From positions 730,829 through 794,828 of the forward strand of contig NZ_JAAMPJ010000001.1 of assembly GCF_011067745.1 (NCBI RefSeq): a DNA stretch of 64,000 nt, given 5' to 3'. The notes beneath the pieces were generated by a model, which saw nothing but the letters and a program-made list of their open reading frames with translations, ran no database searches and was not told the DNA's origin. The position numbers were made by a program, and so were the translations under genes. Numbering within the stretch: the stretch's first letter is position 1; every line of letters begins with the position of its first letter. Positions 19,863-35,186 of the stretch are shown one piece after another. Origin of the DNA: Lentzea alba (GTDB lineage Bacteria > Actinomycetota > Actinomycetes > Mycobacteriales > Pseudonocardiaceae).

Positions 19863-19908
19863 ACCGCTCTCAACGGCAGGCCGGGGACGAACCTGACGAG
19901 AATTGGGC

Positions 19909-20316
19909 ATGCAGGTGGTGAGCGGGACGAATTCCGCGCTGGAGGAGTCGCTGCGGGCCGGACGGCTCAGCTGCCCGGCGTGCCGGGGAGCGTTGCGGCC
20001 GTGGGGCACCGCACGCGAACGCGTGGTGCGGTTGCGGGGGGTCGCGGATCGGAAGGTCCGCCCGCGCAGGGCCAGATGCGCCGGCTGCCGCCGCACTCAC
20101 GTGCTGCTGCCCGATTGGATGCTGCCGCGGCGGGCGTACGCGGCGCCCGTTGTCCGGGAAGCGGTCACCGCACACGTCGGCGGTAAGGGCTATCGGCGGG
20201 TCGCGCTGAGCCTCGGACTGCCCGAGACCACGGTGCGGGACTGGCTGCGCGCGTTCCGCCGCAACACGAGTCCGCCCCATGTCACCGCGTGGTTGTCGTC
20301 AGGTCTGCGCAACTGA
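19909..20316 (+). CDS. DUF6431-like zinc-ribbon helix-turn-helix protein
   Basis: 135 aa. A four-Cys zinc ribbon (CPAC near residue 24 and CAGC near residue 58) is followed by HVLLPDWMLPRRAYA and a helix-turn-helix GYRRVALSLGLPETTVRDWL. This layout fits the DUF6431 family of actinobacteria, which resembles the DNA-binding front end of IS transposases and is often found as an orphan; no transposase catalytic domain follows here. I took the ATG at 19909; TTG 19903 and GTG 19918 are alternatives. The start is only 46 bases from the divergent GGDEF-EAL start, so the two share a promoter region. Confidence 0.7.
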   Translation: MQVVSGTNSALEESLRAGRLSCPACRGALRPWGTARERVVRLRGVADRKVRPRRARCAGCRRTHVLLPDWMLPRRAYAAPVVREAVTAHVGGKGYRRVALSLGLPETTVRDWLRAFRRNTSPPHVTAWLSSGLRN

Positions 20317-20356
20317 GTCCGCTCTGACGGGCATGACCCCGAGGAAAGGACCGGAC

Positions 20357-21496
20357 ATGATCGGCATCTGTGGCATCGGCGTGGTCAGCGGGTACGGCTG
20401 GGGCCGTGCGCCGCTGTGGGACGGCCTGGTGAGCGGCAAACCCGCCGCCCACCTGGTCAGCGGATACGGACCGGGTGACGCGTGGGTGGCGCTCGTACCG
20501 GATGGCGGCGCTCCCGAGGACGGGCCGAGCCGGTTCGTCCGGGCGATGCGGGCCGCCGCACGCGAGGCGATCGTGGACGCCGGCCAGCACGGCTGGATCC
20601 CTGGTCGCCGGGTCGGCCTGTTGCACGCGGTGGTGCTGGGCGAAGTGGATCTCTGGCGGGACTTCTACCTCGCCCGCGACCGGCACGTACCGGTGCGGGA
20701 GTTCCTCGCCCTCATGCCGTCCACGCCGATGTCGACCCTCATGAAGGAGTACGGCTTCCACGGCCCGGCGATGAACGTGTCCGCGATGTGCGCCTCCGGC
20801 AACGCCGCGCTGATCACGGCGAAGTCGTGGCTCGACGCCGGCGTGGTGGACGACGTGGTGCTGGTGGCCACCGACCTCTCCGCCACGCCGGAGAACGTGA
20901 GCCACTTCGTGCGGCTCGGCGTCGCGGTCACCGACACCGACCCGCTGGACGGATGCCGTCCTTTCCAGGAGGGCAGTCGCGGCTTCACCGTCGGCGAGGC
21001 GTCGGTCGCGATGGTGCTGTCGAGCCACGCGTCCGCGCCGTACCTGCACCTGCTGGGTGGCGCGATGTCACACGACGCACACCACGTCACGTCGATCGAT
21101 CCCGGGCTGACGCAGGTGATGACCTGCTTCCGGGACGCGCTCGCCAACTCGGGCGTCGACGCCAACTCGGTGCGCTACCTGAACGCGCACGGGCCCGGCA
21201 CCGCGCAGTGCGACCGTGCTGAGTCGGCCGTGGCGGAAACGCTCTTCACGCCGCACACCGAGATCTACTCGGTCAAGCCACTCACCGCGCACTGTCAGGG
21301 CGCTGCTTCGGCGATCGAGGTGGCCGCCGCCGCCCTGGGGACCGAACGGGGCATCGTGCCCGCACCTCCGACAGTGGCGGCAGCCCACCCGCAACTGCTC
21401 GACGGTCCCACTCCCCTGTCGGACGGCATCACGGTGAAGTCGTCGCTCGGCATGGGCGGCCACAACTCCGTCGTGGTCCTGGCGCCGCCGTGCTGA
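20357..21496 (+). CDS. Stand-alone beta-ketoacyl synthase (thiolase fold, KAS II-like)
   Basis: 379 aa, slightly shorter than FabF (about 410). Catalytic triad intact: Cys145 in SAMCASGNAAL, His278 in NAHGPGT, His312 in KPLTAHCQGAA; C-terminal glycine loop SSLGMGGHNSV. It should catalyse decarboxylative condensation of an acyl thioester with a malonyl unit. AGGAAAGG precedes the ATG at 20357. There is no ACP, reductase, chain-length factor or acyltransferase nearby, so neither fatty acid nor polyketide synthesis is implied by context; the partner ACP must lie elsewhere. A strong hairpin follows. Confidence 0.87.
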   Translation: MIGICGIGVVSGYGWGRAPLWDGLVSGKPAAHLVSGYGPGDAWVALVPDGGAPEDGPSRFVRAMRAAAREAIVDAGQHGWIPGRRVGLLHAVVLGEVDLWRDFYLARDRHVPVREFLALMPSTPMSTLMKEYGFHGPAMNVSAMCASGNAALITAKSWLDAGVVDDVVLVATDLSATPENVSHFVRLGVAVTDTDPLDGCRPFQEGSRGFTVGEASVAMVLSSHASAPYLHLLGGAMSHDAHHVTSIDPGLTQVMTCFRDALANSGVDANSVRYLNAHGPGTAQCDRAESAVAETLFTPHTEIYSVKPLTAHCQGAASAIEVAAAALGTERGIVPAPPTVAAAHPQLLDGPTPLSDGITVKSSLGMGGHNSVVVLAPPC

Positions 21497-21522
21497 CCCA
21501 GCCCGGCCTGCCGAAACAGGTT

Positions 21523-21563
21523 GCCGTCATGACCACCCCCGCCGCGAGGGTGGCCATGACGGC
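21523..21563. terminator. Bidirectional terminator between ketosynthase and sigma factor genes
   Basis: GCCGTCATG (21523-21531) pairs with CATGACGGC (21555-21563), and CCACCC (21533-21538) with GGGTGG (21548-21553), with one internal A/C mismatch. Lies between convergent genes. Confidence 0.8.
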
Positions 21564-21566
21564 GGC

Positions 21567-22361
21567 TCAGGCGGCGAGACGACTGCGGAGCGTGCCACGG
21601 GTGGCCACCTCCGCGAAGTACGCCTCGCGTTTGCGCGCGGCCCTGCCGGACGGCGCCTCGGTCACCAGATCACGGTCGAGCTGCGCGTTGACCCCGTCAC
21701 GGAGCAGCACGAGTGCCTCGGCTCGGATGTGCGACACCCGTGACTCGCCGACACCCAGTTCCGCCGCGATCTCGGCCATCGAGCGCTCCTGGAGGAAGTA
21801 CCTGACGATGACGGTGCGCAGGCTGCTGGGAAGAGCATCGATCGCGTCCCGCAGATAGCCGAGTCGTTCACGCAGCAGCAGCACGTCCTCGGGACCGGGA
21901 GCCCGCTCGCGGACGAGCAGGTCCGCGGTCTCCGGAGTGATGCCCTGGAGGCTGATCGTCGCCGCCCGCCGCACGTCGTTGTGCCACGCCGCCACCTCGC
22001 GCTCGGACACTCCGAGCGCCTGTCCGAGCTCGGCCGGGGTCGGGGTGCGGTTGAGCGCCGCCACCAGGCCGTCCTCGACGGCCTGGAGCTCCCGCGCCCT
22101 GGCTCGCACCGAGCGACTCGCCCAGTCGAGGCCGCGGAGGTGGTCGATCAGCGCGCCGCGAACCCGGACGCACGCGACCTGCGCGAACGCTGCTGTACCC
22201 CGGTAGGTCCTGGCACACGCGACCAAGGCGGTCAGCCCGGCCGACAGGAGGTCCTCCCGGTCGACGTACGCGGGCAGCCTGCGAGCCAGCTGCCGAACCT
22301 CACGGTCCACCAGGGCGAGGTGACCTCGCACAAGTGCCTCGACTTCGCTGATCGGTGCCAT
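21567..22361 (-). CDS. WhiG/FliA-like alternative sigma factor (sigma-70 family)
   Basis: 264 aa from ATG 22361. Regions 2 (DREDLLSAGLTALVACARTY, VRGALIDHLRGLDW), 3 (ELQAVEDGLVAALNRTPTPA, GVSEREVAAWHNDV) and 4 (LPSSLRTVIVRYFLQERSMA, GVGESRVSHIRAEAL) are all present, the layout of sigma-28-type factors. No flagellar gene is in the window, so a developmental or surface role like that of Streptomyces WhiG is more likely. It is divergent from the WxL-like cluster and separated by 320 bases of unusually AT-rich DNA; control of that cluster is a guess. A slightly longer version from 22391 is possible. Confidence 0.85.
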   Translation of the reverse strand: MAPISEVEALVRGHLALVDREVRQLARRLPAYVDREDLLSAGLTALVACARTYRGTAAFAQVACVRVRGALIDHLRGLDWASRSVRARARELQAVEDGLVAALNRTPTPAELGQALGVSEREVAAWHNDVRRAATISLQGITPETADLLVRERAPGPEDVLLLRERLGYLRDAIDALPSSLRTVIVRYFLQERSMAEIAAELGVGESRVSHIRAEALVLLRDGVNAQLDRDLVTEAPSGRAARKREAYFAEVATRGTLRSRLAA

Positions 22362-22681
22362 GTCGGAAGTCTTCGACCGACCGGTGAGCACAGCGGTTTC
22401 CGCTCGGGTGCAGAACGGTTGCAGGCGTCATGACGCGCCGGCACGACATGACCGTCCCTGCACCATGACGATCATCCCTCAAATGCGGGATTCACCATTC
22501 GAAAAAAGGCACAACCACTGCTCATTACGCGTGTTTTCGAGGGATTCTTTTCATGCGATCAGGTCAATTTTTCGCCTGGTGCGCGTTTGGGGTGAGAAGT
22601 AGCATCCCAAATCAGGCCGGCCGACCTGTTGCAGGCAGCCGGAGGCCCTCGTGCAGCTCGTACGACAATGAGAGGCTAGCC
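22362..22681. promoter_or_regulatory. AT-rich divergent promoter region between sigma factor and WxL-like cluster
   Basis: 320 bases. From about 22470 to 22620 the sequence is clearly more AT-rich than its surroundings (for example TTCGAAAAAAGG near 22500 and TCAATTTTTCGCC near 22563), a type of region that Lsr2 tends to bind in actinobacteria. GTTGCAGGC occurs at 22418-22426 and again at 22628-22636. No exact promoter boxes can be assigned with confidence. Confidence 0.45.
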
Positions 22682-23248
22682 ATGCAAACCGGTACCGGTT
22701 TTGGAATTCGAACTACATTCGGCGCATTGGTCGTGGCGGCAGCCATGGTGATGATCAGCTCCGGGTCGGCCGGCGCCGTCGACGACACCACCTCGACGAC
22801 CTTCACCGTCTCATCGGGCACGCTGACGATCAATGCGCCCGCGGCGGCAGCGCTCGGTACAGGGGCGCTGGGAGCCACGATCACGGCGGAACTGGGAGAC
22901 GTGGTCGTCACCGACGCGCGTGCACTGGTGGCTGCCAGCTGGACGGCCACCGTCGCCTCCGGCGACTACACCACCGGCGGCGGGACAGCCAGTGAGACGA
23001 TCGCCAACGACCTCGTGGAGTACTGGTCAGGACCCGTGGTCTCGTCGACAGGCACCGGCACGACGTTCGTGCCCGGACAGGCCACGGAGGAGGACGCGGT
23101 GGCCCTGGACGTGTCCCAGCCGGCGGTCGCTCTCACCGCGGGAGTCGGAATCAACTCCGCGACCTGGACTCCGACGTTGGCCGTCAACGTCCCGCCGAAC
23201 GCGATCGCCGGCGGATACACCGGAACGGTGACGCATTCGGTGGTGTGA
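22682..23248 (+). CDS. Small secreted WxL-like domain protein A
   Basis: 188 aa. GAGAGG precedes ATG 22682; signal peptide ends near SSGSAGA. The mature protein is a single beta-rich domain with GALGATITAELGDVVVTDA, then SWTATV, a middle YWSGPVV, and a C-terminal box ATWTPTLAVNVP followed by YTGTVTHSVV at the very end. In Firmicutes WxL domains, two conserved Trp motifs and a terminal GxYxxTIxW segment sit in the same order; here W-x-L is W-T-A and W-T-P-T and the last Trp is His. I regard it as a divergent WxL-type wall-binding domain. The same domain ends the large protein at 24451 and forms the proteins at 29196 and 29773. Immediately followed by the DUF916-like gene. Confidence 0.75.
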   Translation: MQTGTGFGIRTTFGALVVAAAMVMISSGSAGAVDDTTSTTFTVSSGTLTINAPAAAALGTGALGATITAELGDVVVTDARALVAASWTATVASGDYTTGGGTASETIANDLVEYWSGPVVSSTGTGTTFVPGQATEEDAVALDVSQPAVALTAGVGINSATWTPTLAVNVPPNAIAGGYTGTVTHSVV

Positions 23249-23267
23249 CCGGGCTGCTCGGCTGCTC

Positions 23268-24260
23268 GTGGTGCTGGTGGTCGCCGTGCTCGTGCAGAGT
23301 GCGGCGACCACCGGGTGTTGGTCCGCCACACCGGCCGGGACGCCCGGCGACGGGATCGGTATCAAGCTGCTCGACGCCCCGACCAACAGGCGGGACGACC
23401 CCAGGGCCAAGACGTACATCGTCGACTTCCTCCCTCCCGGCTCCGTGATCAGAAGAAGGGTGGAGATCCGGAACACCACGGACGAGGCGAAGTCCGTCGA
23501 GGTCTATGCGGGCGCTGCCGACATCCAGGACGCCAAGTTCACCGTCGGCGACAATCGCGCGCACAACGAGTTGTCTTCCTGGGTTTCTTTCGACCGCACG
23601 CAGGTCGACCTGTCCGCCCACGGCACGACCACGGTGCTGGCGACGATCACCGTTCCCGCGCAGGCGACAGGTGGCGAGCAGTACGCCGCCATCTGGGCGC
23701 AGGTCGCCGCACCGCCGAGCGGCCCCGGGACAGTGCGCATGGTCAACAGGGTGGGCGTCCGGATCTACCTCAGCGTCGGCCCCGGCGGCGAACCCCGGTC
23801 GGACTTCGAGATCGAGAGCCTGACCCCGGCGCGCACCGCCGACGGACGACCAGAGGTCCTCGCGCAGGTGCACAACACCGGCGGGCGTGCGGTGGACGTC
23901 AGCGGTTCGCTGGTGCTCTCGGACGGGCCAGGAGGGCTGCGCGCGGGCCCGTTCCCGGTGTCCGTCGGCAAGACGATCGAGCCGGGAGGCACGGCACAGG
24001 TGTCGGTCCTGCTCGACCGGAGTCTGCCGGACGGCCCCTGGAAGACGGAGCTGAGTCTGACGAGCGGCCTGATCAACCGGACCGCGACCGCTGTGATCAC
24101 CTTTCCCAGTTCGCCCGGTGTCGGCGAGCCGGTCGTGCCGCAGTTGCCCTATTCGACCGTGCTGCTGGCGGGGCTGCTCGCGGCGGCGTGCACGGCATTG
24201 CTCTGGATCGGCATTCGTTCCTGGCGGCGCCGACGTGAGCGTGCTCGCCTTGACCAGTAA
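23268..24260 (+). CDS. DUF916/WxLIP-like membrane-anchored protein A
   Basis: 330 aa. N-terminal hydrophobic signal (VLVVAVLVQSAATTG), a first beta domain beginning GIGIKLLDAPTNRRDDPRAK and PPGSVIRRRVEIRNTTDE (DUF916-like, the peptidoglycan-binding half of WxL-interacting proteins), a second beta domain with VLAQVHNTGGRAVDVSGSL and LPDGPWKTELSL, then one membrane helix (TVLLAGLLAAACTALLWIGI) and an Arg-rich cytosolic tail. That is the layout of Firmicutes WxLIP. About half identical to the second copy at 30338. The start is uncertain: GTG 23268 leaves no positive charge before the hydrophobic core, while the codons just upstream read DRAARLL in both copies but contain no ATG, GTG or TTG. The gap to the upstream stop is 19 bases, so translation is probably coupled. 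Confidence 0.78.
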   Translation: MVLVVAVLVQSAATTGCWSATPAGTPGDGIGIKLLDAPTNRRDDPRAKTYIVDFLPPGSVIRRRVEIRNTTDEAKSVEVYAGAADIQDAKFTVGDNRAHNELSSWVSFDRTQVDLSAHGTTTVLATITVPAQATGGEQYAAIWAQVAAPPSGPGTVRMVNRVGVRIYLSVGPGGEPRSDFEIESLTPARTADGRPEVLAQVHNTGGRAVDVSGSLVLSDGPGGLRAGPFPVSVGKTIEPGGTAQVSVLLDRSLPDGPWKTELSLTSGLINRTATAVITFPSSPGVGEPVVPQLPYSTVLLAGLLAAACTALLWIGIRSWRRRRERARLDQ

Positions 24261-24450
24261 TCCGGCAGGAAAGCGCTGCGGCTGTTCCCGGACCGTTCTG
24301 ATTACGGCAAAAAATAGAAGATCACACCTTTTGGTGGTTGGCGTGACGGGGCAAAGCACGGTGGGCGTGCGGGACCGAATACTGACCTCGGTTGCGTGGG
24401 CGGAGCGCGGGCGTCAAGGGTCGCCCGTCGTTTCCTGACGAGTTGGGGTG

Positions 24451-27400
24451 ATGGTGTTGAAGCGGCGGGTTTTGGCCAGGCTGGTGGTCACAGTCTTGCT
24501 GGTGACCTTGCTGCCGCTCATCTTTCCCGGTGCGGCCACGGCATCGACACCACTCACGATCACCAGCGCGAACCACGCGGAATTCGCGGTTGGCCGGCCC
24601 GAGACCTTCACCCTCACCGCGACCCGTTCCCTGGCGCCTGTTCTCACCGCGGCCGGCGCATTGCCCGACGGCGTCGAGTTCGTCGACAACCATGACGGGA
24701 CAGCCACGCTGTCCGGAACACCCAGGGTCAAGGGCGCGTATCCCCTGACCGTCAGTGCCCGCGACACCGCCGGCCGAACCGCCGAGCAGAGACTCCTCCT
24801 CAGCGTTGGGGAGGGTTGGTACAACCCGAGCTGGCAACGCCGCAAGCCGATCACGATCGACCACGACCTGGTGGGCGCGACGCTGACCAACTTTCCCGTG
24901 AAGATCATGAGGTCCACCGACTCCGACCTGGCCGGCAAGGCGCAGTCGAGCGGCAACGACATCCTGTTCACCAACTCGGACGGCACCACCAAGCTCAACC
25001 ACCAGATCCAGTTGTACACGCCGGCAACCGGTGCGCTGATCGCGTGGGTGCAGGTGCCCACGTTGTCCAGCACGACCGACACGACGCTGTACATGTACTA
25101 CGGCAACGGTTCGGCCTCCAGTCAGCAGAACGCCAGCGCGGTGTGGGACTCCACCAACGCCGCCGTCTGGCACCTGTCCGAATCCGTCAGCACGTCTGCC
25201 GGCAACTTCAAGGACTCCACCAGCAACGCCAACCACGCCACGTACCAAGGCTCACCTGGCTTGACCACGGACCCCGGCGGTGGCCTCGTCTTCAACGGCA
25301 CGTCCAACTACCTGTCAACCGCGAACCAGCAGAACAATCCGCAGATCTTCACCGTCGAGGCGTGGGTCAAGACCTCCAGCGCGTCGGGTAAGCAGATCAT
25401 CAGCTACGAGAACGCACAGACAGGCACCGCGGCCACCAGGTACGACCGGGGCCTCAACATCGGAACCGACGGCAGAGCCTACTTCGGCGTGTGGGACGGT
25501 AGCGCCGTTCATGCGGTGCCCGCCGGTACCAACCTGGCCAACGGCGGCTGGCACCACCTCGTCGCCACGTACAGCAACGTCAGCCAGGTCCTCGTCATGT
25601 ACGTGAACGGCTCCCTCGCCGCCTCCACCGTCAGTCCCTCGGCCGAGATCATGAACGCGTGGTGGCGGATCGGCAGCTATCACCCGCCCGGCAACACCGT
25701 CGGTGTCGCCGGATACTTTCCAGGCAGCATCGACGAAGTCCGCATCGCCAACGTCGTGCGCTCGACCGGTTGGATCACCACCAACTTCAACAACCAGAAC
25801 GACCCCTTCACGTTCGCGCCGGTCGGCACCGAGCAGACCCTCACCGCACCGGCGATCACGAGTGCGAACAGCACCAGTTTCGCCCAGGGCTCAGCGGGCA
25901 CCTTCACCGTCACCGCGACCGGCACGCCAACGCCCACCCTCAGTCACACCGGCACGCTGCCCACCGGTGTGACCTTTGTGGACAACGGCAACGGAACGGC
26001 CACCCTGGCGGGAACACCCACGGTCGCGGGCTCCTACCCGTTGACCATCACGGCCAGCAACGCGGCCAGCCCCAACGCCACGCAGAGCTTCACCTTGACC
26101 GTCGCATCGGCTTGGTACAACGCAGGCTGGCTGTACCGCAAGGCGATCACGATCGACCACACGAAGGTGCCGGCCAACACGACCAACTTCACGGTCCTGG
26201 TCAGCAGAACCGACTCCGGCCTCGCCGCGCACGCCCACAACACCGGACGCGACATCCTGTTCACCGACTCGGACAGAGTCACCAAGCTCAGCCACGAGAT
26301 CGAGTCCTACACCTCGGCGTCCGGGATCCTGGTCGCCTGGGTACAGGTGCCCTCCCTGTCCAGCACGGTCGACAAGACCATCTACATGTACTACGGCAAT
26401 GCCGCCGCCAGCGACCAGCAGAACGTCAGCGGCACCTGGCGCTCGGAGTACAAGGGGGTCTGGCACCTGTCACAGAGCCCGACCGCCACCGCCCCGCAGT
26501 TCAAGGACTCGACCAGCAACGCCAACCACGGCACCGCGCAGGGTTCGATCGCCTCCGGCGCCCAGGTGGCCGGCAAGGTCAACGGCAGCATCAGCCTCGA
26601 CGGCACGTCCGACTACGTCTCGACAGCCGTCCTGCAGGCCAACCCCCAGGTGTTCACGGTCGAAGGATGGGTGAACACCAACACCCCCACCGGCGAGGCC
26701 TTCATCAACTTCGAGGACATCCAGACCGGCAGTGCCGCCACCAACAACTACGACCGCACTCTCTACGTGGGGTCCGACGGCAGACCTCGCTTCGTCTTGT
26801 GGGACGGCACGACGGCGCGTACCGCGACGGGTAGCAGCAGCATCGCCAACGGCGCGTGGCACCACCTCGCCGGCACTTACAACGGTTCGATCATGAGCCT
26901 TTACGTGGACGGCGTGCTCGTCTCGACGGCCGCCAGCGCCTCGGCTCAGGTGTTCAACGGCTACTGGCGCTTCGGCAGTTATCACGAGGTTCCCTACACC
27001 GCGGGTGCCGACGGCTACTTCCAAGGCGTCATCGACGAAATCCGGGTGTCCAACACGGCTTGGCCGGCGACGACCATCACCACCAGGTACAACAACGAGA
27101 ACTCGCCGTCCACGTTCTTCTCGCTGGCCGCGGAAGAGCAGTACTCCGCCGCGCCGACGATCACGAGTGCGAGCAGCACCACTTTCTCCTCGACCCTGCC
27201 GGGCTCGTTCACCGTCACCACGACCGGCAGCCCGACACCAACCCTCAGTGTGACCGGCACTCTGCCCAGCGGCGTGACCTTCGTGAACAACGGCAACGGA
27301 ACAGCCACCCTGGCCGGAACGCCGGCATCGACTGCCACGGGTGCGTACCCGCTGACCATCACCGCCGACAGCTCGGTCAACCCCGACGCCACCCAGAGCT

Positions 27401-29157
27401 TCACCCTCACCGTCGTGTCGGGGTGGTACAACTCCAACTGGCGTTACCGCAAGGCGATCACGATCGACCGCACCAAAGTCGGCTCGACCCTGACGAACTT
27501 CCCGTTCCTGGTCAGCAGAACCGACTCCGATCTCGCCGCACGCGCCCAGTCCAGTGGTAACGACATCCTGTTCACCAGCTCGGACGGCGTCACGAAGCTC
27601 AACCACCAGATCGAGACCTACACGTCGGGCACCGGCGTGCTCGTGAGCTGGGTCAAAGTGCCCAGTCTGTCCACCACCGCCGACACGGTCATCTACATGT
27701 ACTACGGCAACGCCTCGGCATCGGACCAGCAGACCGCGAGCGCGGTCTGGGACTCAGGCTTCTCCGGTGTCTGGCACCTGTCCGAGGGGCCCACGACCAC
27801 GGCCCCGCAGTTCAAGGACTCGACCAGCAACACCAACCACGGCACGGCGCAAGGAACGATGGCCGCGGGCGCGCAGGTGTCGGGCAAGATCGACGGTTCG
27901 TTGACGCTCGACGGCACTGACGACTACGTCTCCACCACGAACCAGCTGACGAACCCGCAGAACTTCATGGAGGGCGTCTGGTTCAAGACGAACCTGGCGT
28001 CCGGGCGGAAGGTGCTCGGCTTCGAGCAGGTGCAGGTCGGCACCGGCGCGGGCAGCTACGACCGGCACATCTACGTCGGCACCGACGGCAAGGTCTACTT
28101 CGGCGTGAACGACGGCGCGGGCAACAACATCGCCATCTCCTCCAGCGGCACCGTCACCGACGGGGCATGGCATTACGCCGTGGGCTACCGCGACGACGTC
28201 ACCGACACGATCGGCCTGTACCTGGACGGATCGCTGCAGGTGACCGCGGCCAGCCCTCAGGCGCAGCCGTTCAACGGCTACGTGCGCATGGGCGCCTACC
28301 GATCGCTCGGGCCCAACTGGCCGAGCGCGGGCGGTAACGGTTACTTCCCCGGCAGCATCGACGAAGTCCGGTTCGGCGCCACCGTGCGCAGTGCGGGGTG
28401 GATCACCACCGAGTACAACTCCCAGAGCTCGCCGTCGACCTTCTCGACCACGGCCAGCCAGGTCACCTACACCGCCGCGCCCGCGATCACGAGCGCGAAC
28501 AGCACCACTTTCACCGCGGGCTCGGCGGGCACCTTCACCATCACCACGACCGGCGTGCCGACACCGGCCCTCAGCAAGACCGGCGCGTTGCCCACCGGAG
28601 TCACCTTTGTGGACAACGGCAACGGCACGGCAACGCTGTCGGGAACACCCGCGGTCGCGGGCTCCTATCCGTTGACGATCACAGCCAGCAGTTCGACGAG
28701 TCCCAACGCCACCCAGTCCTTCACCCTCACCGTCAACGGAGGCTCCCTGTCGATCACCTTGCCCAGCACCGCGAATCTGGGCAGTGGCGCACTCGGCAGC
28801 ACGGTCAGCGGCGCACTCGGCTCCGTGCAGGTCATCGACAACCGCGGCAGCACCAGCGCGTCGTGGACCGCCTCGGTGTCCTCCACGACCTTCACCGGTG
28901 CCGGAAAGACGATTCCGCTCGCGAACCTGAGGTACTGGTCCGGGCCGTCGACCTCGACCACCGGCACCGGCACCTTCACGCCGGGACAGAACACCTCAGG
29001 AGCCGCGCAGGACCTCACCGCGTCTCGCACCTGCTTCACGCTGGCAGGAGGCAACGGCATCAACCAAGCCACGTGGAGCCCGACACTGGTGGTCACGGTG
29101 CCGATAACTCTGGTCCCCGCCACCTACAGCGGAACAGTCACGCACTCCGTCGTTTAG
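24451..29157 (+). CDS. Giant secreted Ig-DUF2341-LamG x3 protein with C-terminal WxL-like domain
   Basis: 1568 aa. Signal peptide VLKRRVLARLVVTVLLVTLL ending near GAATA. Three copies of a module of about 435 residues follow: a putative Ig domain (DNHDGTATLSGTPRVKGAYP type), a DUF2341 domain (WYNPSWQRRKPITID ... LYMYYGNGSAS) and a concanavalin-like LamG domain (FTVEAWVKT ... WHHLVATYS ... GSIDEVRIANVVRS). A fourth Ig domain precedes the C-terminal WxL-like domain (SWTASV, YWSGPS, ATWSPTLVVTVP, YSGTVTHSVV). There is no sortase signal or membrane helix at the end, so wall attachment must come from the WxL-like domain. LamG and DUF2341 domains suggest glycan or matrix binding. Placed between the two small-WxL/WxLIP pairs on the same strand. 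Start ATG 24451; GTG 24448 is equally possible. Confidence 0.88.
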   Translation: MVLKRRVLARLVVTVLLVTLLPLIFPGAATASTPLTITSANHAEFAVGRPETFTLTATRSLAPVLTAAGALPDGVEFVDNHDGTATLSGTPRVKGAYPLTVSARDTAGRTAEQRLLLSVGEGWYNPSWQRRKPITIDHDLVGATLTNFPVKIMRSTDSDLAGKAQSSGNDILFTNSDGTTKLNHQIQLYTPATGALIAWVQVPTLSSTTDTTLYMYYGNGSASSQQNASAVWDSTNAAVWHLSESVSTSAGNFKDSTSNANHATYQGSPGLTTDPGGGLVFNGTSNYLSTANQQNNPQIFTVEAWVKTSSASGKQIISYENAQTGTAATRYDRGLNIGTDGRAYFGVWDGSAVHAVPAGTNLANGGWHHLVATYSNVSQVLVMYVNGSLAASTVSPSAEIMNAWWRIGSYHPPGNTVGVAGYFPGSIDEVRIANVVRSTGWITTNFNNQNDPFTFAPVGTEQTLTAPAITSANSTSFAQGSAGTFTVTATGTPTPTLSHTGTLPTGVTFVDNGNGTATLAGTPTVAGSYPLTITASNAASPNATQSFTLTVASAWYNAGWLYRKAITIDHTKVPANTTNFTVLVSRTDSGLAAHAHNTGRDILFTDSDRVTKLSHEIESYTSASGILVAWVQVPSLSSTVDKTIYMYYGNAAASDQQNVSGTWRSEYKGVWHLSQSPTATAPQFKDSTSNANHGTAQGSIASGAQVAGKVNGSISLDGTSDYVSTAVLQANPQVFTVEGWVNTNTPTGEAFINFEDIQTGSAATNNYDRTLYVGSDGRPRFVLWDGTTARTATGSSSIANGAWHHLAGTYNGSIMSLYVDGVLVSTAASASAQVFNGYWRFGSYHEVPYTAGADGYFQGVIDEIRVSNTAWPATTITTRYNNENSPSTFFSLAAEEQYSAAPTITSASSTTFSSTLPGSFTVTTTGSPTPTLSVTGTLPSGVTFVNNGNGTATLAGTPASTATGAYPLTITADSSVNPDATQSFTLTVVSGWYNSNWRYRKAITIDRTKVGSTLTNFPFLVSRTDSDLAARAQSSGNDILFTSSDGVTKLNHQIETYTSGTGVLVSWVKVPSLSTTADTVIYMYYGNASASDQQTASAVWDSGFSGVWHLSEGPTTTAPQFKDSTSNTNHGTAQGTMAAGAQVSGKIDGSLTLDGTDDYVSTTNQLTNPQNFMEGVWFKTNLASGRKVLGFEQVQVGTGAGSYDRHIYVGTDGKVYFGVNDGAGNNIAISSSGTVTDGAWHYAVGYRDDVTDTIGLYLDGSLQVTAASPQAQPFNGYVRMGAYRSLGPNWPSAGGNGYFPGSIDEVRFGATVRSAGWITTEYNSQSSPSTFSTTASQVTYTAAPAITSANSTTFTAGSAGTFTITTTGVPTPALSKTGALPTGVTFVDNGNGTATLSGTPAVAGSYPLTITASSSTSPNATQSFTLTVNGGSLSITLPSTANLGSGALGSTVSGALGSVQVIDNRGSTSASWTASVSSTTFTGAGKTIPLANLRYWSGPSTSTTGTGTFTPGQNTSGAAQDLTASRTCFTLAGGNGINQATWSPTLVVTVPITLVPATYSGTVTHSVV
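24817..28460 (+). repeat. Three DUF2341-LamG coding repeats, period about 1300 bp
   Basis: Equivalent Trp codons of the WYN motif start at 24817, 26113 and 27424 (spacing 1296 and 1311 bp). The modules share long near-identical DNA stretches such as those coding for FKDSTSNANH and IYMYYGNA, so internal recombination may change copy number. Confidence 0.85.
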
Positions 29158-29195
29158 GAAGCACCCGTCGACTTCGAATGAGCTAGGAGGGTGTT

Positions 29196-29738
29196 GTGTC
29201 CGGTAAACGCATCGGGTCGCTCGTGGCCGGAGTCGCCATTGCGGCCGGTACTGCTGTTCCGGCGAACGCCGAGAATTCCACGGTGTCGTTCGCGACCACC
29301 GGCGGCACGCTTTCGGTGGTGGCGCCCGCCGCGGCGACGCTGACCGGTGGCAGCACCATTCCGGGCGGGACGGTGACCGGTGCACTGGGAACCGTCACCG
29401 TCACCGATGCGCGGGGCAATGCCGCCGGGTGGACCGCGAGCGTGTACTCGACGACCGGATTCACCGCCGCCCAAAGCACCGCGATCGCCAACAGCAGCGT
29501 CACCTACACGCCAGGAGCGACCACGAGCACCACTTCGCCCGGCAGCCCGACCATCACCGCGGGAACCGCCGGATCACCAGGCGCCAACGCCGGAGCAGCA
29601 CTCACCGCGTACACCTACGCCAACGCGACCGCCGGAGGAAACACCGTCGCCTGGAACCCCACCATCGCAGTCGTCATCCCGTCCAACGCGATTGGAAACT
29701 CGACCTACTCCGGGACGATCAGCCATCAGGTGGTGTGA
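29196..29738 (+). CDS. Small secreted WxL-like domain protein B
   Basis: 180 aa. AGGAGG five bases before GTG 29196; signal peptide with MSGKRIG and cleavage near VPANA. Domain core: GTVTGALGTVTVTDARGN, GWTASV, VAWNPTIAVVIP, and the C-terminal YSGTISHQVV, so it is the same WxL-like domain as at 22682 and 24451. It differs from protein A in having a long Thr/Ala/Gly-rich loop (GATTSTTSPGSPTITAGTAG) in place of the YWSGP region. Nearly identical to the next gene over most of its length. The stop TGA is followed by C, a weak termination context shared with the other small genes of the cluster. Confidence 0.77.
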   Translation: MSGKRIGSLVAGVAIAAGTAVPANAENSTVSFATTGGTLSVVAPAAATLTGGSTIPGGTVTGALGTVTVTDARGNAAGWTASVYSTTGFTAAQSTAIANSSVTYTPGATTSTTSPGSPTITAGTAGSPGANAGAALTAYTYANATAGGNTVAWNPTIAVVIPSNAIGNSTYSGTISHQVV

Positions 29739-30261
29739 CGTTGTTCCAGGCGCTGCCGAGAAAGGGAAAGCCGTGAGCATCAAGCGAATCTGTTTGCTCG
29801 GAGCGGGTGTCGCTGCCGTTGCGGTCGGTACCGCTGTTCCAGCGAATGCGGAGGACACCACCGTGACGGTCACCGCGAGTGCCGGCTCTCTTTCGGTGGC
29901 GGTGCCCGCCGTGGCGACGCTGACCGGTGGCAGCACCATTCCGGGCGGGACGGTGACCGGTGCACTGGGAACCGTCACCGTCACCGATGCACGAGGTAAT
30001 GCCTCGGGGTGGACCGCGAGCGTGTACTCGACGACCGGATTCACCGCCGCCCAAAGCACCGCGATCGCCAACAGCAGCGTCACCTACACGCCAGGAGCGA
30101 CCACGAGCACCACTTCGCCCGGCAGCCCGACCATCACCGCGGGAACCGCCGGATCACCAGGCGCCAACGCCGGAGCAGCACTCACCGCGTACACCTACGC
30201 CAACGCGACCGCCGGAGGAAACACCGTCGCCTGGAACCCCACCATCGCAGTCGTCATCCCG
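29427..30261 (+). repeat. Tandem gene duplication with 255-bp identical blocks
   Basis: Bases 29427-29681 and 30007-30261 are identical over 255 bp (offset 580), and a further stretch at 29333-29410 / 29913-29990 is identical too. The signal peptides, first strands and last 15 codons differ. This pattern fits recent duplication or gene conversion of the domain core. Confidence 0.92.
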
Positions 30262-30318
30262 CTCACCGCGAAGGCCGCGGTGACGTACTCCGGGACGGTG
30301 AGCCATCAGGTGGCGTGA
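29773..30318 (+). CDS. Small secreted WxL-like domain protein C (tandem copy of B)
   Basis: 181 aa. GTG 29773 preceded by AAAGGGAAAG; signal peptide SIKRICLLGAGVAAVAVGTA with cleavage near VPANA. Same domain and motifs as protein B (GWTASV, VAWNPTIAVVIP, YSGTVSHQVA); mature N terminus and final segment PLTAKAAV differ. The following WxLIP-like gene starts about 19 bases after its stop, exactly as after protein A, so this is the second small-WxL/WxLIP pair of the cluster. Presumably exported and bound to the wall or to the WxLIP-like partner. Confidence 0.77.
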   Translation: MSIKRICLLGAGVAAVAVGTAVPANAEDTTVTVTASAGSLSVAVPAVATLTGGSTIPGGTVTGALGTVTVTDARGNASGWTASVYSTTGFTAAQSTAIANSSVTYTPGATTSTTSPGSPTITAGTAGSPGANAGAALTAYTYANATAGGNTVAWNPTIAVVIPLTAKAAVTYSGTVSHQVA

Positions 30319-30337
30319 CAGGGCTGCCCTGCCGCTG

Positions 30338-31354
30338 GTGCTCAGCTGTCTGGTCGCCCTCGTGAACGGGGACACCGGCGCGGCGGCGCCCGGGGACCAA
30401 GCCACGAACAGCATCGGCATCCGGCTGCTCGAGATGCCCGCGAACCGCTTGGACGACCCTCGCGCACAGGTCTACATCGTCGACCACCTCGCGCCCGGCG
30501 CCGTCATCAAACGACATGTGCTGATCACGAACAATTCCTCTGTGCCGCAACACATCGAGGTCTTCCCCGGCGCGGCCAGCATCGACGACGACGCGTTCAA
30601 CGCGCTCGCCGGACGCACCACCAGCGAGCTGACCAGCTGGATCTCGCTCAACCGCGCCGCCGTCGACCTGCCGCCGGGAGGAAGCGAGAAGGTGCTGGTG
30701 ACGATCGCGGTCGACCCCACCGCGTCCACCGGCGAGCGCTACGGCGTCATCTGGGCGGAGACCAGCGCCCCGTCCAACACACCTGAGAACGTCCTGATGG
30801 TCACCAGAGTCGGCGTCCGGATCTACCTCGCCGTCGGACCCGGCGGTGACCCGGCGCCGAGTTTCGACATCAGCAGCCTCACCCCGTCGCGCGACGGCGA
30901 CCGCAGACCCGAGGTGCTGGCCACCGTTCACAACACGGGAGGCCGTGCACTGGACATGGCGGGCGAACTGACGCTGTCCGACGGCCCCGGAGGGGTGACC
31001 GCGGGTCCGTTCCCGGTCTCGACCGCGGTCACGGTGCTACCGGGCGACACCGCCGGAGTGCGCACGGTTCTCGACCAACGCTTGCCGGACGGTCCGTGGA
31101 AGGCGCGGCTGACGCTGCGCAGTGGCTTCATCGAGCGAGTTGTGACGGCCACCATCACCTTTCCGTCCGCTGCCAACGCAGTGGGGGGACCGGTGACCCC
31201 CGAGAACTGGTTCCAGGCGCACCCGTTGCTGGCAAGCGGGCTGGCCGCGCTGTTCGTGGCAGCGCTGTTCGTGGCGTTCTTCGTCGCGCGCCGGAGCATG
31301 GCTTCGCGTCGCCGGGAGAACGACGAGGCGGAGCCCCTCGCCGAGGGGCTCTGA
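30338..31354 (+). CDS. DUF916/WxLIP-like membrane-anchored protein B
   Basis: 338 aa. Same layout as the copy at 23268: hydrophobic N terminus, DUF916-like domain (SIGIRLLEMPANRLDDPRAQ, APGAVIKRHVLITNNSSV), second beta domain (VLATVHNTGGRALDMAGEL, LPDGPWKARLTL), one helix (LLASGLAALFVAALFVAFFV) and a basic then acidic tail (RRSMASRRRENDEAEP). The conserved blocks VGVRIYL, SLTP and LSDGPGG are shared by both copies. Start GTG 30338 is the first NTG-type start in frame except CTG; the preceding codons again read DRAA, as in copy A. Expected role: lipid-bilayer-anchored partner holding WxL-like proteins at the wall. The stop lies within a hairpin. Confidence 0.78.
   Translation: MLSCLVALVNGDTGAAAPGDQATNSIGIRLLEMPANRLDDPRAQVYIVDHLAPGAVIKRHVLITNNSSVPQHIEVFPGAASIDDDAFNALAGRTTSELTSWISLNRAAVDLPPGGSEKVLVTIAVDPTASTGERYGVIWAETSAPSNTPENVLMVTRVGVRIYLAVGPGGDPAPSFDISSLTPSRDGDRRPEVLATVHNTGGRALDMAGELTLSDGPGGVTAGPFPVSTAVTVLPGDTAGVRTVLDQRLPDGPWKARLTLRSGFIERVVTATITFPSAANAVGGPVTPENWFQAHPLLASGLAALFVAALFVAFFVARRSMASRRRENDEAEPLAEGL
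31331..31351 (+). terminator. Hairpin at the 3' end of WxLIP-like gene B
   Basis: GAGCCCCTC (31331-31339) and GAGGGGCTC (31343-31351) with a 3-base loop, ending right before the stop codon. May help transcription end together with the larger hairpin 18 bases on. Confidence 0.5.
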
Positions 31355-31368
31355 TCGAGACCAAAACG

Positions 31369-31404
31369 CCCCGCCCGGCTACCAGTGCTGGTAGCCGGGC
31401 GGGG
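31369..31404. terminator. Strong terminator between convergent WxLIP-like and protease genes
   Basis: CCCCGCCCGGCTACCAG (31369-31385) pairs perfectly over 17 bp with 31388-31404. Read on the minus strand it is followed by CGTTTTGG, a U-run suited to the protease transcript; it probably works both ways. Confidence 0.9.
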
Positions 31405-31430
31405 TGGTCGAGGCGGTGGTGGGATGGGTG

Positions 31431-33014
31431 TCAGAAGTTGAGTTGCCAGGCGTCGAGGTAGCCGGTGTCGGTGGTGCGGTAGTGGTCTTGGATGCGGAGT
31501 TTCCAGGTGCCGTTGGCGGGTTCGGTGGAGGCGTTGAGGGTGTAGGTGGCGGTGAGGTTGTCGGTGGTGTCGGTGAGGGTGGTGTTGCGCAGTCGGTAGG
31601 TGGTGCCGTCGGGGGCGATGAGGTCGAGTTGCAGGTCGCCGCGGGCGGTGTGCTTGATGTCGACGGTGATTTTGAGGGTGGTGGGGGCGTTGCCGGTGCG
31701 GCCGGTGACGGTGATGGGGCTGGTGAGGGTGCCGGTGCCGGGGATGGCGGCGTTGGTGGTGTTGGCGAAGGTCGTGGGAGCCGGAGCGGGAGCCGGTGCG
31801 GGAGCCGGTGCGGGGGTGGTGGTGTGGGTGCCGGTGTAGAGCAGGGTGTTGGGGGAGCCGGTGGCGGCGTTGCGGACGAGACCGGTGGTGGCGGTGCCGA
31901 CCAGGGCGGTGCGGACCTGCAGCGGTGTGGCGGCGGGGTTGGTGGCGAGGTGGAGTGCGGCGGCGCCGGCGACGTGGGGGGTGGCCATGGAGGTGCCGCT
32001 CATGGCACCGGCCGAGGTGTCGGAGGCGTAGGTGGCGGAGGTGATGGAGACGCCGGGAGCGAACAGGTCGACGCAGGTGCCGTAGTTGGAGAAGGAGGCC
32101 TTGGTGTCGGTCTTGTCCACCGCGCCCACGGTGATCGCCTCGGCCACGCGGGCGGGGGACACGGTGCAGGCGTCCTGCTGCACGCCCTGCGCGTTGCCGT
32201 TGCCGGCGGCGACGGTGTAGGTGAGGCCGGAGGCGATGGAGGTGCGGACGGCCTGGTCGATCGCGGAGTTCGCGCCACCACCGAGGCTGAGGTTGACCAC
32301 GGCGGGCTTGACGGCGTTCTGGGTGACCCAGTTGATGCCGTTGACGATCTGCTCACTGGTCCCGGAGCCCTGGCAGTTCAGGACCCGCACGGCGACGAGT
32401 TTGACCTGCTTGGCCATGCCGTAGGTGGTGCCGCCGACGGTGCCCGCGACATGGGTGCCGTGGCCCTGGCAGTCCTGCCCGTTCTTCCCGTCGCCGATCG
32501 CGTCGAACCCGACCCGGGCCCGCCCACCGAACTCGGCATGCGATGTGCGGATACCGGTGTCGAGGATGTAGGCGGTCACGTTGCTGGCGGTGGTGGCAGA
32601 GGTGTACTTGGTGTCCAGGGGCAGGGTGCGCTGGTCGGTGCGGTCCAGGCCCCAGGTGGCGCTGGTCTGGGTGTCGCTCATGTGGACTTCGGTGACGGGC
32701 TGCACGTAGGCGATGCGGGGGTCCGCGGCCAGCCGCCGGGCCTGGGCCTCGGTCATCTCCACGGAGAAGCCGTGCAAGGCGGAGGTCCAGGTGGTGCGGA
32801 CCTTGCCACCGAACCGGCCCGCCAGCTCGCCTGCGGCGCCGCTGTGGCCGTCTTTGAACACCGCGATGTAGCGGTCGCCCACGACCGTGGCGCCCGGCAC
32901 CGGCCGGATCTCGCCCTCGGCGGCCGAGGCGTTCGCCACGCCGGCCGTACCGAGCACACCGAGAACCGCGATACCGAACGTCGCCGCTGCCGCCACCACA
33001 CGCGTTGTGATCAC
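31431..33014 (-). CDS. Secreted subtilisin-like S8 protease with P domain
   Basis: 527 aa. GTG 33014 after AAGGGAG; signal peptide TRVVAAAATFGIAVLGVLGT, cleaved near ANA. I9 propeptide at about 45-110 (RYIAVFKDGHS, ALHGFSVEM). Catalytic Asp in AYILDTGIRTSH, His in GHGTHVAGTVGG, Ser in GTSMATPHVAGAA; the oxyanion Asn is in TVAAGNGNAQG. A Pro-Ala linker (TPAPAPAPAPAPAPTT) leads to a C-terminal P domain (DIKHTARGDLQLDLIAPDGT, ending WQLNF), as in aqualysin-like enzymes of actinomycetes. Extracellular protein degradation or processing. Intact paralogue of the broken gene at 9286-10827; convergent with the WxL-like cluster behind a shared terminator. Confidence 0.93.
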   Translation of the reverse strand: MITTRVVAAAATFGIAVLGVLGTAGVANASAAEGEIRPVPGATVVGDRYIAVFKDGHSGAAGELAGRFGGKVRTTWTSALHGFSVEMTEAQARRLAADPRIAYVQPVTEVHMSDTQTSATWGLDRTDQRTLPLDTKYTSATTASNVTAYILDTGIRTSHAEFGGRARVGFDAIGDGKNGQDCQGHGTHVAGTVGGTTYGMAKQVKLVAVRVLNCQGSGTSEQIVNGINWVTQNAVKPAVVNLSLGGGANSAIDQAVRTSIASGLTYTVAAGNGNAQGVQQDACTVSPARVAEAITVGAVDKTDTKASFSNYGTCVDLFAPGVSITSATYASDTSAGAMSGTSMATPHVAGAAALHLATNPAATPLQVRTALVGTATTGLVRNAATGSPNTLLYTGTHTTTPAPAPAPAPAPAPTTFANTTNAAIPGTGTLTSPITVTGRTGNAPTTLKITVDIKHTARGDLQLDLIAPDGTTYRLRNTTLTDTTDNLTATYTLNASTEPANGTWKLRIQDHYRTTDTGYLDAWQLNF

Positions 33015-33083
33015 TGAGACTCCCTTGTCAACATCGACCGCTTCGATGTCACAAGGTTCGAGGCCTCCAGTAGCGCGACCCGG

Positions 33084-35186
33084 TCACTCCCGGTTGCACA
33101 ACGGTTGCGGCGAATCCACCTCCGCGTCGGCCTCGGAATCGACCGGTAGCACGATCGTCACCATCGTTCCCTCGCCTGGCCGGGACGTCACCGAGATGTC
33201 GCCGCCGTGCCTCTCCACGATGTGCTTGACGATGGCGAGCCCCAGACCGGTGCCCTGGATCTCGTGCTCGATCGCGAGCGACGACCGGAAGAACCGGCTG
33301 AACAGTTTCGGAAGCTCGTCCTGCGCGATACCGATCCCGGTGTCCGCCACGGTGATCCGCGCCTCGGTTCCCACGCACCGCGCACGAATCACCACCGAGC
33401 CCGCCGGCTGGGTGAACTTGACCGCGTTGCTCAGCACGTTGATCAGCGCCCGGTCGAGCTGGTTCGGGTCGGCCTGCACCACGATCGGCTCGGGCCCGAG
33501 CTGGCAAACCAGGGTGATCGCCTTCTTGACCGCGGCCGGTTCGACGCTCTTCACGGCGGCTTCCACGAGAGCGACGAGGTCAGTCGGCTCCACGACAGGC
33601 TGGAACTGGCCGGAGTCGATCTTGCCGACGGTCAGGATGTCCTCAACGAGCCGCAACAACCGCCCGGTGTTGCGCTGGATGATCGAAGTCATCTCCAGCT
33701 GGTCACCGGTCAGCTCTCCGGCGACCCCGTCCACCAGCAGCTCCAGGTAGCCCGAGATGCTCGTCAGGGGCGTGCGCAGCTCATGGGACACGTTGGCGAC
33801 GAAGTCGGTCTTGATCTGGTCGAGCCCGCGCAGCTCCTCGACCACCTCCTGTTCTCGCGCGTACGCGTCACGCAGAGCGCGTTCGGCTTCCTTGCGCTCG
33901 CTGATGTCCCTGACGAAGGCGTTGAAGCGGTAGGGGCCGGTCGGCTCCGGCTGCCAGACGTACAACTCGATCGGGAACTCCTGGCCGTCGCGGCGCAGAG
34001 CGGCGAGCTCGACCTGCCGGCCGAGCACGGATGCTTCGCCGGTGGCCTTGAGGCGTGCGATCCCGGCCATGTGGTCGGCGCGGAACCGTTCCGGCACAAC
34101 GGTGTCCGCGAGCGCCCTGCCCATGATGTCGGCGCGCGGCCAGCCGAACATCCGCTCGGCCGCCGCGTTCCACTCGGTGACACAACCGTCCTCGTCCAAC
34201 GCGATGAACGCGTCGTGCGCGGTGCTGATGACCGTCCTCAGCTGATGCACGGTCTCCTGCAACATCGTCTGGCTCTGCAGCAGATCCGCACGGTCGGACA
34301 TCCGCGCGGCGGCGAGACCCACTTCCCTCCCGAGCTCGGTGACCAGGGCGAGCACACGCGGGCAGGGACGGCGGACATCGGGGTCGAAGAACTCCAGCAC
34401 GGCGACCACGCCGTCCTCGGAGTGCACGGGGAACGCGAACCCACTGGCCGCTCCGAGTTCGGTCAGGCCGATGTCGTCCATCCACTTCGGACGGAGGGTG
34501 GCCGCCGCCTCACCACTCAGGCCGACGCCAGGCGCCACCCTCGTGTTCTCCATGATCTCCCGCAACCGCCCGAAACGGCCGTCGTCCGCACCGTGCCACA
34601 GCTTCGCCGACATCAGCTCGCCAGTGCCGTCGGCGGCGGGAACGCAGACGTGCCCGACCGGCCACCCGGTGTGGGCGCACACCTCGTCCAAGCAGAACTG
34701 GAGCACCTCGGCCAGATCGGCCGCCCGATGCGCCTTCGACAACACACGGCTGCGCACCTCCACCGCCCGCGCCGCTCGCTCGGCGCCGAGCTCGCACTCG
34801 ACCTGCCACCCCAAGGCCAGCAACGCTTCCAGCGCATCGTGGTCGAGGTGCCGGACGTCGCGGGCGGCGACGAACAGCACGCCGACCGTGCGCAGGTCGT
34901 CGTCGCGGACAGGCACGCCCGTGTAGAAGCGGATTGCCCGGCCCTCGTACGGTCGTACCTGGGCGAACATGACCAGGTCGTCGGCTTCCACGGTCTGCCT
35001 GCACAACAACAGCAGCTCCTCCTGGCTGGGCGACACACCCCGCACGTCGTGCAGGGTCAGCTCGTGCCCTTCCAGCAGAGCGACACCCGCGATCGGGACC
35101 CGGGCGAGCGTGGCCGCGACCAACACCGCTTCGTTGAACCCCCGCCCTGTCACCGCAGACGGCCGGGTCGTCGACGTCCTGTTCAC
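33084..35186 (-). CDS. Cytosolic histidine kinase, GAF-GAF-PAS-HisKA-HATPase
   Basis: 700 aa. Start GTG 35186, with AGGAGG upstream; it shares GTGA with the stop of the preceding kinase, so translation is coupled. GAF domains at about 15-150 and 155-305, PAS at about 315-435 (AHDAFIALDEDGCVTEWNAA). Kinase box IKTDFVANVSHELRTPLTSI, His at about 468; ATPase signatures NVLSNAVKFTQPAG, DTGIGIAQDEL and GTGLGLAIVKHIV. No membrane helix. Last gene of the operon with two receivers, HEAT protein, GT2 enzyme and the membrane kinase; the REC-only proteins at the operon head are its likely partners. Confidence 0.93.
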   Translation of the reverse strand: MNRTSTTRPSAVTGRGFNEAVLVAATLARVPIAGVALLEGHELTLHDVRGVSPSQEELLLLCRQTVEADDLVMFAQVRPYEGRAIRFYTGVPVRDDDLRTVGVLFVAARDVRHLDHDALEALLALGWQVECELGAERAARAVEVRSRVLSKAHRAADLAEVLQFCLDEVCAHTGWPVGHVCVPAADGTGELMSAKLWHGADDGRFGRLREIMENTRVAPGVGLSGEAAATLRPKWMDDIGLTELGAASGFAFPVHSEDGVVAVLEFFDPDVRRPCPRVLALVTELGREVGLAAARMSDRADLLQSQTMLQETVHQLRTVISTAHDAFIALDEDGCVTEWNAAAERMFGWPRADIMGRALADTVVPERFRADHMAGIARLKATGEASVLGRQVELAALRRDGQEFPIELYVWQPEPTGPYRFNAFVRDISERKEAERALRDAYAREQEVVEELRGLDQIKTDFVANVSHELRTPLTSISGYLELLVDGVAGELTGDQLEMTSIIQRNTGRLLRLVEDILTVGKIDSGQFQPVVEPTDLVALVEAAVKSVEPAAVKKAITLVCQLGPEPIVVQADPNQLDRALINVLSNAVKFTQPAGSVVIRARCVGTEARITVADTGIGIAQDELPKLFSRFFRSSLAIEHEIQGTGLGLAIVKHIVERHGGDISVTSRPGEGTMVTIVLPVDSEADAEVDSPQPLCNRE

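What the first reader, a model, noticed from the sequence alone, without database searches (positions are those of the whole stretch)
22682..31354. A WxL-like surface complex in an actinomycete, with W-T-A / W-x-P-T in place of W-x-L
Seen: four proteins (A 22682, giant 24451, B 29196, C 29773) share one C-terminal domain with an SWTATV-type box, a W(T/S/N)PT(L/I)xV box and an end Y(T/S)GT(V/I)(T/S)H(S/Q)V. Two further proteins (23268, 30338) have two beta domains, one membrane helix and a basic tail, like DUF916-type WxL-interacting proteins. Known: Firmicutes WxL operons encode exactly this trio of small WxL, large multidomain WxL and WxLIP. Inference: this is a diverged, possibly uncharacterised actinobacterial version that holds the LamG/DUF2341 giant on the wall without sortase. 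I know of no experimental description.
Basis: partly seen in the sequence, partly recalled or inferred. Interest (0 to 1): 0.85.

Follow-up and report, generated by a model that had tools for sequence, protein, structure and literature searches.

The report
Actinobacterial WxL-type wall-anchor gene cluster
A Lentzea-like actinomycete carries a six-gene cluster whose proteins match, by sequence profile, and for the membrane partner also by predicted fold, the WxL surface complexes known mainly from Firmicutes; it likely uses them to hold a giant, probably sugar-binding protein on its wall without sortase, although the motif that names the family is partly lost.

The parts
22682..23248 (+). A: small WxL-like protein (188 aa), module 1
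   Evidence: GAGAGG 6 nt before the ATG. No Pfam hit alone; aligned with B, C and the giant
23268..24260 (+). IP1: WxLIP-like protein, C-terminal hydrophobic stretch and basic tail; 19 nt after A
   Evidence: PF06030 19.6 bits, below cut-off 27.3; family profile match to Firmicutes WxLIP
24451..29157 (+). giant (1568 aa): three DUF2341 and three LamG_3 domains with He_PIG domains, ending in a WxL-like domain
   Evidence: Pfam LamG_3 x3, DUF2341 x3, He_PIG x4
28651..29154 (+). WxL-like domain at the end of the giant
   Evidence: E 2.2e-51; alignment
29196..29738 (+). B: small WxL-like protein (180 aa)
   Evidence: PF13731 27.1 bits, cut-off 25; model pLDDT 87.7
29773..30318 (+). C: small WxL-like protein (181 aa), near-duplicate of B
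   Evidence: PF13731 25.3 bits, cut-off 25; 484 of 546 aligned nt identical to B, 100 of 100 in one block
30338..31354 (+). IP2: WxLIP-like protein; 19 nt after C
31369..31404 (.). 16-pair hairpin between IP2 and the convergent subtilase gene; its T-rich tail is on the - strand, so it fits the subtilase transcript best and marks the cluster's edge only indirectly
   Evidence: 4 terminator-like sites found, 4.3 expected from shuffles, so weak evidence

Best explanation
The six genes at 22682-31354 encode an actinobacterial variant of the WxL-WxLIP (Csc) cell-surface complex: four proteins end in a WxL-related domain and two are WxLIP-like membrane proteins, which likely clasp those domains and so would hold the giant LamG/DUF2341 protein at the cell wall. 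Shown by sequence, profile or model: domain sharing, relation to WxL and WxLIP, the long C-terminal helix, gene order and co-occurrence. Inferred steps: (1) all are exported by Sec; (2) IP1 and IP2 stay in the membrane by the C-terminal helix, with the two Ig-like domains outside; (3) the first (DUF916-like) domain pairs with a WxL domain, as the title of the solved entry 9i25 (WxLIP bound to long WxL) implies for E. faecium, possibly by adding a strand; (4) the WxL domains also touch peptidoglycan, as reported for Firmicutes WxL; (5) the LamG/DUF2341 repeats reach outward and bind polysaccharide. The two modules (A-IP1 and B-C-IP2) diverged as units, so each WxLIP is probably cognate to the small WxL gene next to it.
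Confidence: 0.72

Rival explanations
1. Chaperone-pilin-like fibre: WxLIP acts as a membrane-tethered PapD-like chaperone, and small WxL proteins chain by donating their N-terminal strand (TxTFTxTGG) to the next subunit, with the giant as the tip.
Confidence: 0.12
2. The proteins are mainly released or matrix polysaccharide binders: the WxL-like domain itself binds insoluble glycans, and WxLIP is only a folding or export helper.
For: L. brevis single-domain WxL proteins bind cellulose and xylan (PMC12691797, passages). WXL proteins are found both on the surface and in the medium (PMC5817068, passage). The giant has LamG domains.
Against: The domain is at the very end in each of the 14 of 120 large hits that carry it, as expected for an anchor. 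Tight pairing with a membrane protein.
Confidence: 0.1
3. No kinship: a convergent Ig-like sandwich with chance motif resemblance to WxL.
For: W2 lost, PF13731 hits close to the cut-off, weak fold matches.
Against: Profile match with the DxRGxxxGW block in register, plus an independent match of the partner family to WxLIP and their genomic pairing.
Confidence: 0.05

Closest known systems
WxL domain proteins (Pfam PF13731; CscB/CscC), Lactobacillales and Bacillales
   Same: Small stand-alone and large multidomain forms; C-terminal domain; GxL strand, DxRG block, W1, Y-x-x-T end strand; ConA-like cargo also occurs in CscC (PMC1534035, passages)
   Different: L1 mostly Ala, W2 His/Gln, L2 mostly Val; the protein ends with the last box; separate actinobacterial clade of the partner
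WxLIP / CscA (DUF916-DUF3324, PF06030-PF11797; PDB 9i1y, 9i25)
   Same: Two Ig-like domains plus C-terminal helix and basic tail, 330-338 aa; first-domain profile; fold; next to WxL genes
   Different: The NQIDKxxxYFDLK block (paper) is N-R-x-D-D-P-R-A-x-x-Y-I-V-D here; below Pfam cut-offs; second domain not recognisable by sequence alone
csc gene cluster (cscA-D) of L. plantarum and others (PMC1534035)
   Same: cscA + cscB + cscC content
   Different: No LPxTG cscD; two WxLIP genes and three small WxL genes around one giant
Periplasmic pilus chaperones (PapD/FimC/Caf1M)
   Different: Membrane-anchored, in an actinomycete, no usher seen in the cluster, lower Z than WxLIP

Membership tests
WxL domain (PF13731) | Passes curated Pfam score | tested here: inconclusive
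   Met by B (27.1) and C (25.3) vs 25; not by A or the giant
WxL domain (PF13731) | Two W-x-L motifs | tested here: not met
   L1 Ala 45 of 63; W2 His 48, Gln 12, Tyr 2, Glu 1 of 63
WxL domain (PF13731) | D-x-R-G before the first Trp | tested here: met
   D and R 63 of 63, W1 61 of 63; G is absent in A and some other rows
WxL domain (PF13731) | Domain at the C-terminal end, small and large forms | tested here: met
WxL domain (PF13731) | Profile homology to Firmicutes members | tested here: met
   97.1%, E 5.9e-11 vs small forms; only 46.7% vs large forms
WxL domain (PF13731) | Binds peptidoglycan / cell wall | not testable with these tools
   none
WxL domain (PF13731) | Fold match to solved long WxL (9i25_A) | tested here: inconclusive
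   Not among the 50 rows shown
WxLIP (DUF916-DUF3324) | PF06030 above cut-off | tested here: not met
   IP1 19.6 vs 27.3 bits, IP2 no hit; met by the distant actinobacterial group in L206, L207, L208
WxLIP (DUF916-DUF3324) | PF11797 (DUF3324) second domain | tested here: not met
   No Pfam hit listed at E <= 10; profile of this domain alone 17%
WxLIP (DUF916-DUF3324) | Two-domain Ig-like fold of WxLIP | tested here: met
   9i25_C and 9i1y rank first for the IP2 model
WxLIP (DUF916-DUF3324) | C-terminal transmembrane helix | tested here: met
   Helix 296-330 in the IP2 model; hydrophobic stretch in IP1
WxLIP (DUF916-DUF3324) | Clustered with WxL genes | tested here: met
WxLIP (DUF916-DUF3324) | Binds a WxL domain | not testable with these tools
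   No complex prediction available
[quoted passage not shown]
   2 WxLIP-like and 4 WxL-like, under the looser homology definition
csc cluster | LPxTG protein (usual, not obligatory) | tested here: not met
   None of the six ends in a sortase signal; the giant's one LPxTA string lies inside the WxL-like region

The most novel reading that the evidence does not exclude
WxL-WxLIP is a Gram-positive, sortase-free counterpart of chaperone-pilin assembly. The membrane-tethered PapD-like WxLIP completes WxL subunits that lack a strand; free N-terminal strands of A, B and C link subunits by donor-strand exchange; and the giant, whose corresponding strand is used by its He_PIG domain, is the lectin-bearing tip, as FimH is in type 1 pili.
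Probability: 0.12. Interest if true: 0.88.

Novelty: new variant of a known kind. Interest (0 to 1): 0.52.

Why it matters
WxL complexes have been described almost only from Lactobacillales and Bacillales. A deep, separate actinobacterial lineage, with its own cargo (LamG/DUF2341, FG-GAP, ice-binding-like, haem-type HtaA domains), would show that this non-covalent anchor is a general Gram-positive device. It also gives a natural test of which residues matter: W1 and the D-x-R block are kept, while W2 and mostly both Leu are replaced. It supplies two likely cognate pairs in one genome (A-IP1 and C-IP2) for testing specificity.

Tried and rejected
Degenerate DNA patterns for Firmicutes WxLIP and WxL in viral contigs found nothing. 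tblastn of B in plasmids found nothing. Sequence searches of the PDB with B and IP2 gave only hits at E >= 0.027. The B-family profile gave E >= 0.43. The IP-family profile gave one entry, TLP-IPT (21nr_A), at E 8.2e-7, summed over four weak repeat copies (each 2.2 or worse alone), set aside as not informative. A profile of 11 Firmicutes large WxL domains did find 9i25_A; a single Firmicutes large WxL did not. The B model did not list 9i25_A among its shown matches; viral structures gave no match at E <= 0.001. The NCBIfam scan gave no hit near a cut-off. No Rfam match in 20000-34000. No sigma-70-like promoter in 21400-31500. The last large-protein search mostly hit the He_PIG domain; only 14 of the 120 listed rows (of 546) carry the WxL-like domain, one of them the window's own giant.

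P0054, a 512-aa apparent WxL-WxLIP fusion, was rejected as natural linkage: its WxL end box is lost in what looks like a frame error. It was not put in a fold job.

W/L counts in the regex-picked Firmicutes set are true by construction, so they were recounted on HMM-found domains (rows not made non-redundant, and the HMM was built from the regex set). The co-occurrence P value (7.7e-18) ignores shared ancestry. In the WxLIP tree one Firmicutes row and one actII row are long branches and the bootstrap had not settled. The 19 pairs were chosen by me as strong-group pairs with a WxL upstream; left out were one extra IP gene in L203, L198 (cut before its IP), L209 (no WxL found) and the distant group L206-L208.

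Full report
WHAT IS THERE. The window lies in a 10.2 Mb genome (G000) whose closest named protein relatives are Lentzea. Six same-strand genes fill 22682-31354: A, IP1, giant, B, C, IP2. Gaps are 19 nt (A-IP1), 190 nt (IP1-giant), 38, 34 and 19 nt. A 16-pair hairpin lies at 31369-31404; its T-rich tail is on the minus strand, so it fits the convergent subtilase gene best. Flanks are unrelated in kind: a ketoacyl synthase and a sigma-70-type factor upstream, a subtilase with P-domain downstream on the other strand.

THE SHARED DOMAIN. A, the giant's last 168 residues, B and C align end to end. In the 63-row family the invariant or near-invariant positions include G37, L39, D71, R73, W79, W153, P155, Y171, G173, T174 and V179. 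B and C pass Pfam's WxL cut-off (27.1 and 25.3 against 25); A and the giant do not.

THE FIRMICUTES YARDSTICK. The actinobacterial family profile against 21 Firmicutes small WxL gives 97.1%, E 5.9e-11; against 11 large WxL 46.7%, E 2e-4; against its own partner family, a negative control, 3.1%. A profile of the same 11 large domains finds the solved long WxL 9i25_A, so the yardstick is the right family.

WHAT HAPPENED TO W-x-L. The alignments put GWTA on GWTL and YSGTITHSV on Y(T)xTLTWTL. This agrees with the published distal motif YXXX(L/I/V)TWXL (PMC5817068, passage), and with the Asp at W-8 and Arg at W-6 of PMC9772566 (section 3.5 read); that spacing holds in 32 of 63 rows including B and C, is one longer in 17 including A and the giant, and two longer in 14. 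So W1 is kept (61 of 63), L1 is Ala (45 of 63), and W2 is His (48), Gln (12), Tyr (2) or Glu (1) of 63, with L2 mostly Val (58). In HMM-found Firmicutes domains W2 is Trp in 183 of 185 and 162 of 165 rows.

CO-OCCURRENCE. In 246 Actinomycetota genomes, 23 have the WxLIP-like profile (E <= 1e-10) and 21 the WxL-like one (E <= 1e-4), 17 both; only a capped number of candidates per genome was scored, so these are lower bounds. Strong WxLIP matches (E < 1e-40) have a WxL within 2 kb in 14 of 17. The misses are a second copy 2.2 kb away and two overlapping pieces in G207. Strong WxL matches (E < 1e-20) have a WxLIP within 2 kb in 17 of 18 (miss: G169). Weak matches: 5 of 17 and 6 of 15. In 200 family genomes all 10 strong WxLIP matches (6 genomes) have a WxL within 2 kb; of 30 WxL matches 23 have a strong WxLIP within 8 kb, and four of the seven others have a weaker one in the fetched locus. 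The cluster is patchy: 4 of the 12 same-genus genomes shown have the strong WxLIP. The full order A-IP1-giant-B-C-IP2 is kept in two of them and up to a contig end in a third. In the 19 strong-group pairs that I listed the WxL gene lies next to and upstream of the WxLIP gene on the same strand (see Tried and rejected for what was left out). In Firmicutes 39 of 85 WxLIP genes have a motif-picked WxL gene within 400 nt upstream; 6 of the other 46 lie near a locus end.

HISTORY. In a tree of 47 WxLIP proteins the 20 strong actinobacterial ones form one side of a branch (97/99), the 20 Firmicutes ones another (100/98), and IP1 and IP2 belong to separate subclades, each shared with other Lentzea-like genomes (bootstrap not settled). 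A and IP1 each resemble their counterparts in the relative G398 more than their paralogues in the same genome (WxL 0.73 vs 0.28, WxLIP 0.87 vs 0.46 score ratios); distances of the 19 pairs correlate at rho 0.59, reached by 0 of 2000 permutations, which does not correct for common descent.

CARGO. Of 120 listed large hits, 14 carry the domain, each at the very end and each ending THSV plus one residue (one is the window's own giant). Other anchored modules seen: FG-GAP repeats (L194), an ice-binding-like domain (L195), and in the distant group an HtaA domain (L208). Siezen et al. describe ConA-like lectin domains in Firmicutes CscC (PMC1534035, passages), which the LamG giant resembles in kind.

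MECHANISM. Shown: kinship by profile and fold, long C-terminal helix, pairing of genes. Inferred: the WxLIP first domain clasps the WxL domain. The 2023 paper reports an AlphaFold2 prediction of a DUF916 hairpin strand inserted into WxL (PMC10599100, abstract), entry 9i25 is titled WxLIP bound to long WxL (title only), and a review tells of in vitro binding of two E. faecium WxL proteins to their transmembrane partner and of non-covalent wall binding (PMC5817068, passage; the primary papers were not read). Also inferred: wall contact in this organism and outward display of the LamG units. None of the six ends in a sortase signal, although the genome has four sortase-family matches over the cut-off, so the sortase route exists in the cell but these proteins carry no signal for it.

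LITERATURE. Seven searches of the open library listed no paper that by title or start of abstract treats WxL complexes in Actinomycetota; one search listed 40 of 112, most listed papers were not opened, and subscription papers are not covered. A paper on bee-gut lactobacilli and bifidobacteria places its WxL genes in the lactobacilli (PMC4449606, passages). PMC9772566 says over 91% of 938 WxL sequences are in Firmicutes. PMC12537917 (passages) reports DUF916 genes near Actinomycetota-restricted Ang-2 genes. NCBI names some B relatives 'WxL domain-containing protein' and the WxLIP relatives 'hypothetical protein', 'COG1470 family protein' or 'peptidase'. So the domain name is partly known, and the complex is not described in what I could search.

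VERDICT. New variant of a known kind. Under the strict definition (two W-x-L motifs, Pfam cut-offs for WxLIP) the Lentzea proteins fail membership; by homology and organisation they very likely work like a WxL-WxLIP complex.

Noticed in passing
L208:4634-7267; also L206:5226-7983, L207:4324-6874: A second, more distant actinobacterial group: about 500-aa proteins ending in a WxL-like domain (W2 replaced by Phe or Leu) next to WxLIP genes that do pass PF06030. One carries an HtaA domain.
   Followed up: partly
L195:3807-4979 and L194:5317-7413: Ice-binding-like domain, and FG-GAP repeats, each on a protein ending in the WxL-like anchor, in one related genome.
   Followed up: partly
window 29196-30318: B and C are 484 of 546 aligned nt identical, with 100 of 100 identical in one block but diverged ends: recent gene conversion or an assembly effect.
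   Followed up: partly
window 29274-29306 (B residues 27-37): Conserved alternating N-terminal segment D-T-T-V-T-F-T-x-T-G-G right after the likely signal peptide of small WxL proteins, not in a strand in the model: a possible donor strand.
   Followed up: partly
window 21567-22391 (-); L191, L193: Sigma-70-type factor gene next to the cluster; homologues lie beside the cluster in two relatives, on the opposite strand in L193 and in two frames in L191.
   Followed up: partly
L203, L205: In two genomes of one family the WxL-WxLIP pair sits close to a gyrA gene (with intein-type domains in L203).
   Followed up: no
P0054: 512-aa database protein that looks like a WxL-WxLIP fusion but is probably a frame error.
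   Followed up: partly
window 17124-20096: PAS-GGDEF-EAL protein (c-di-GMP signalling type) a few genes upstream.
   Followed up: no
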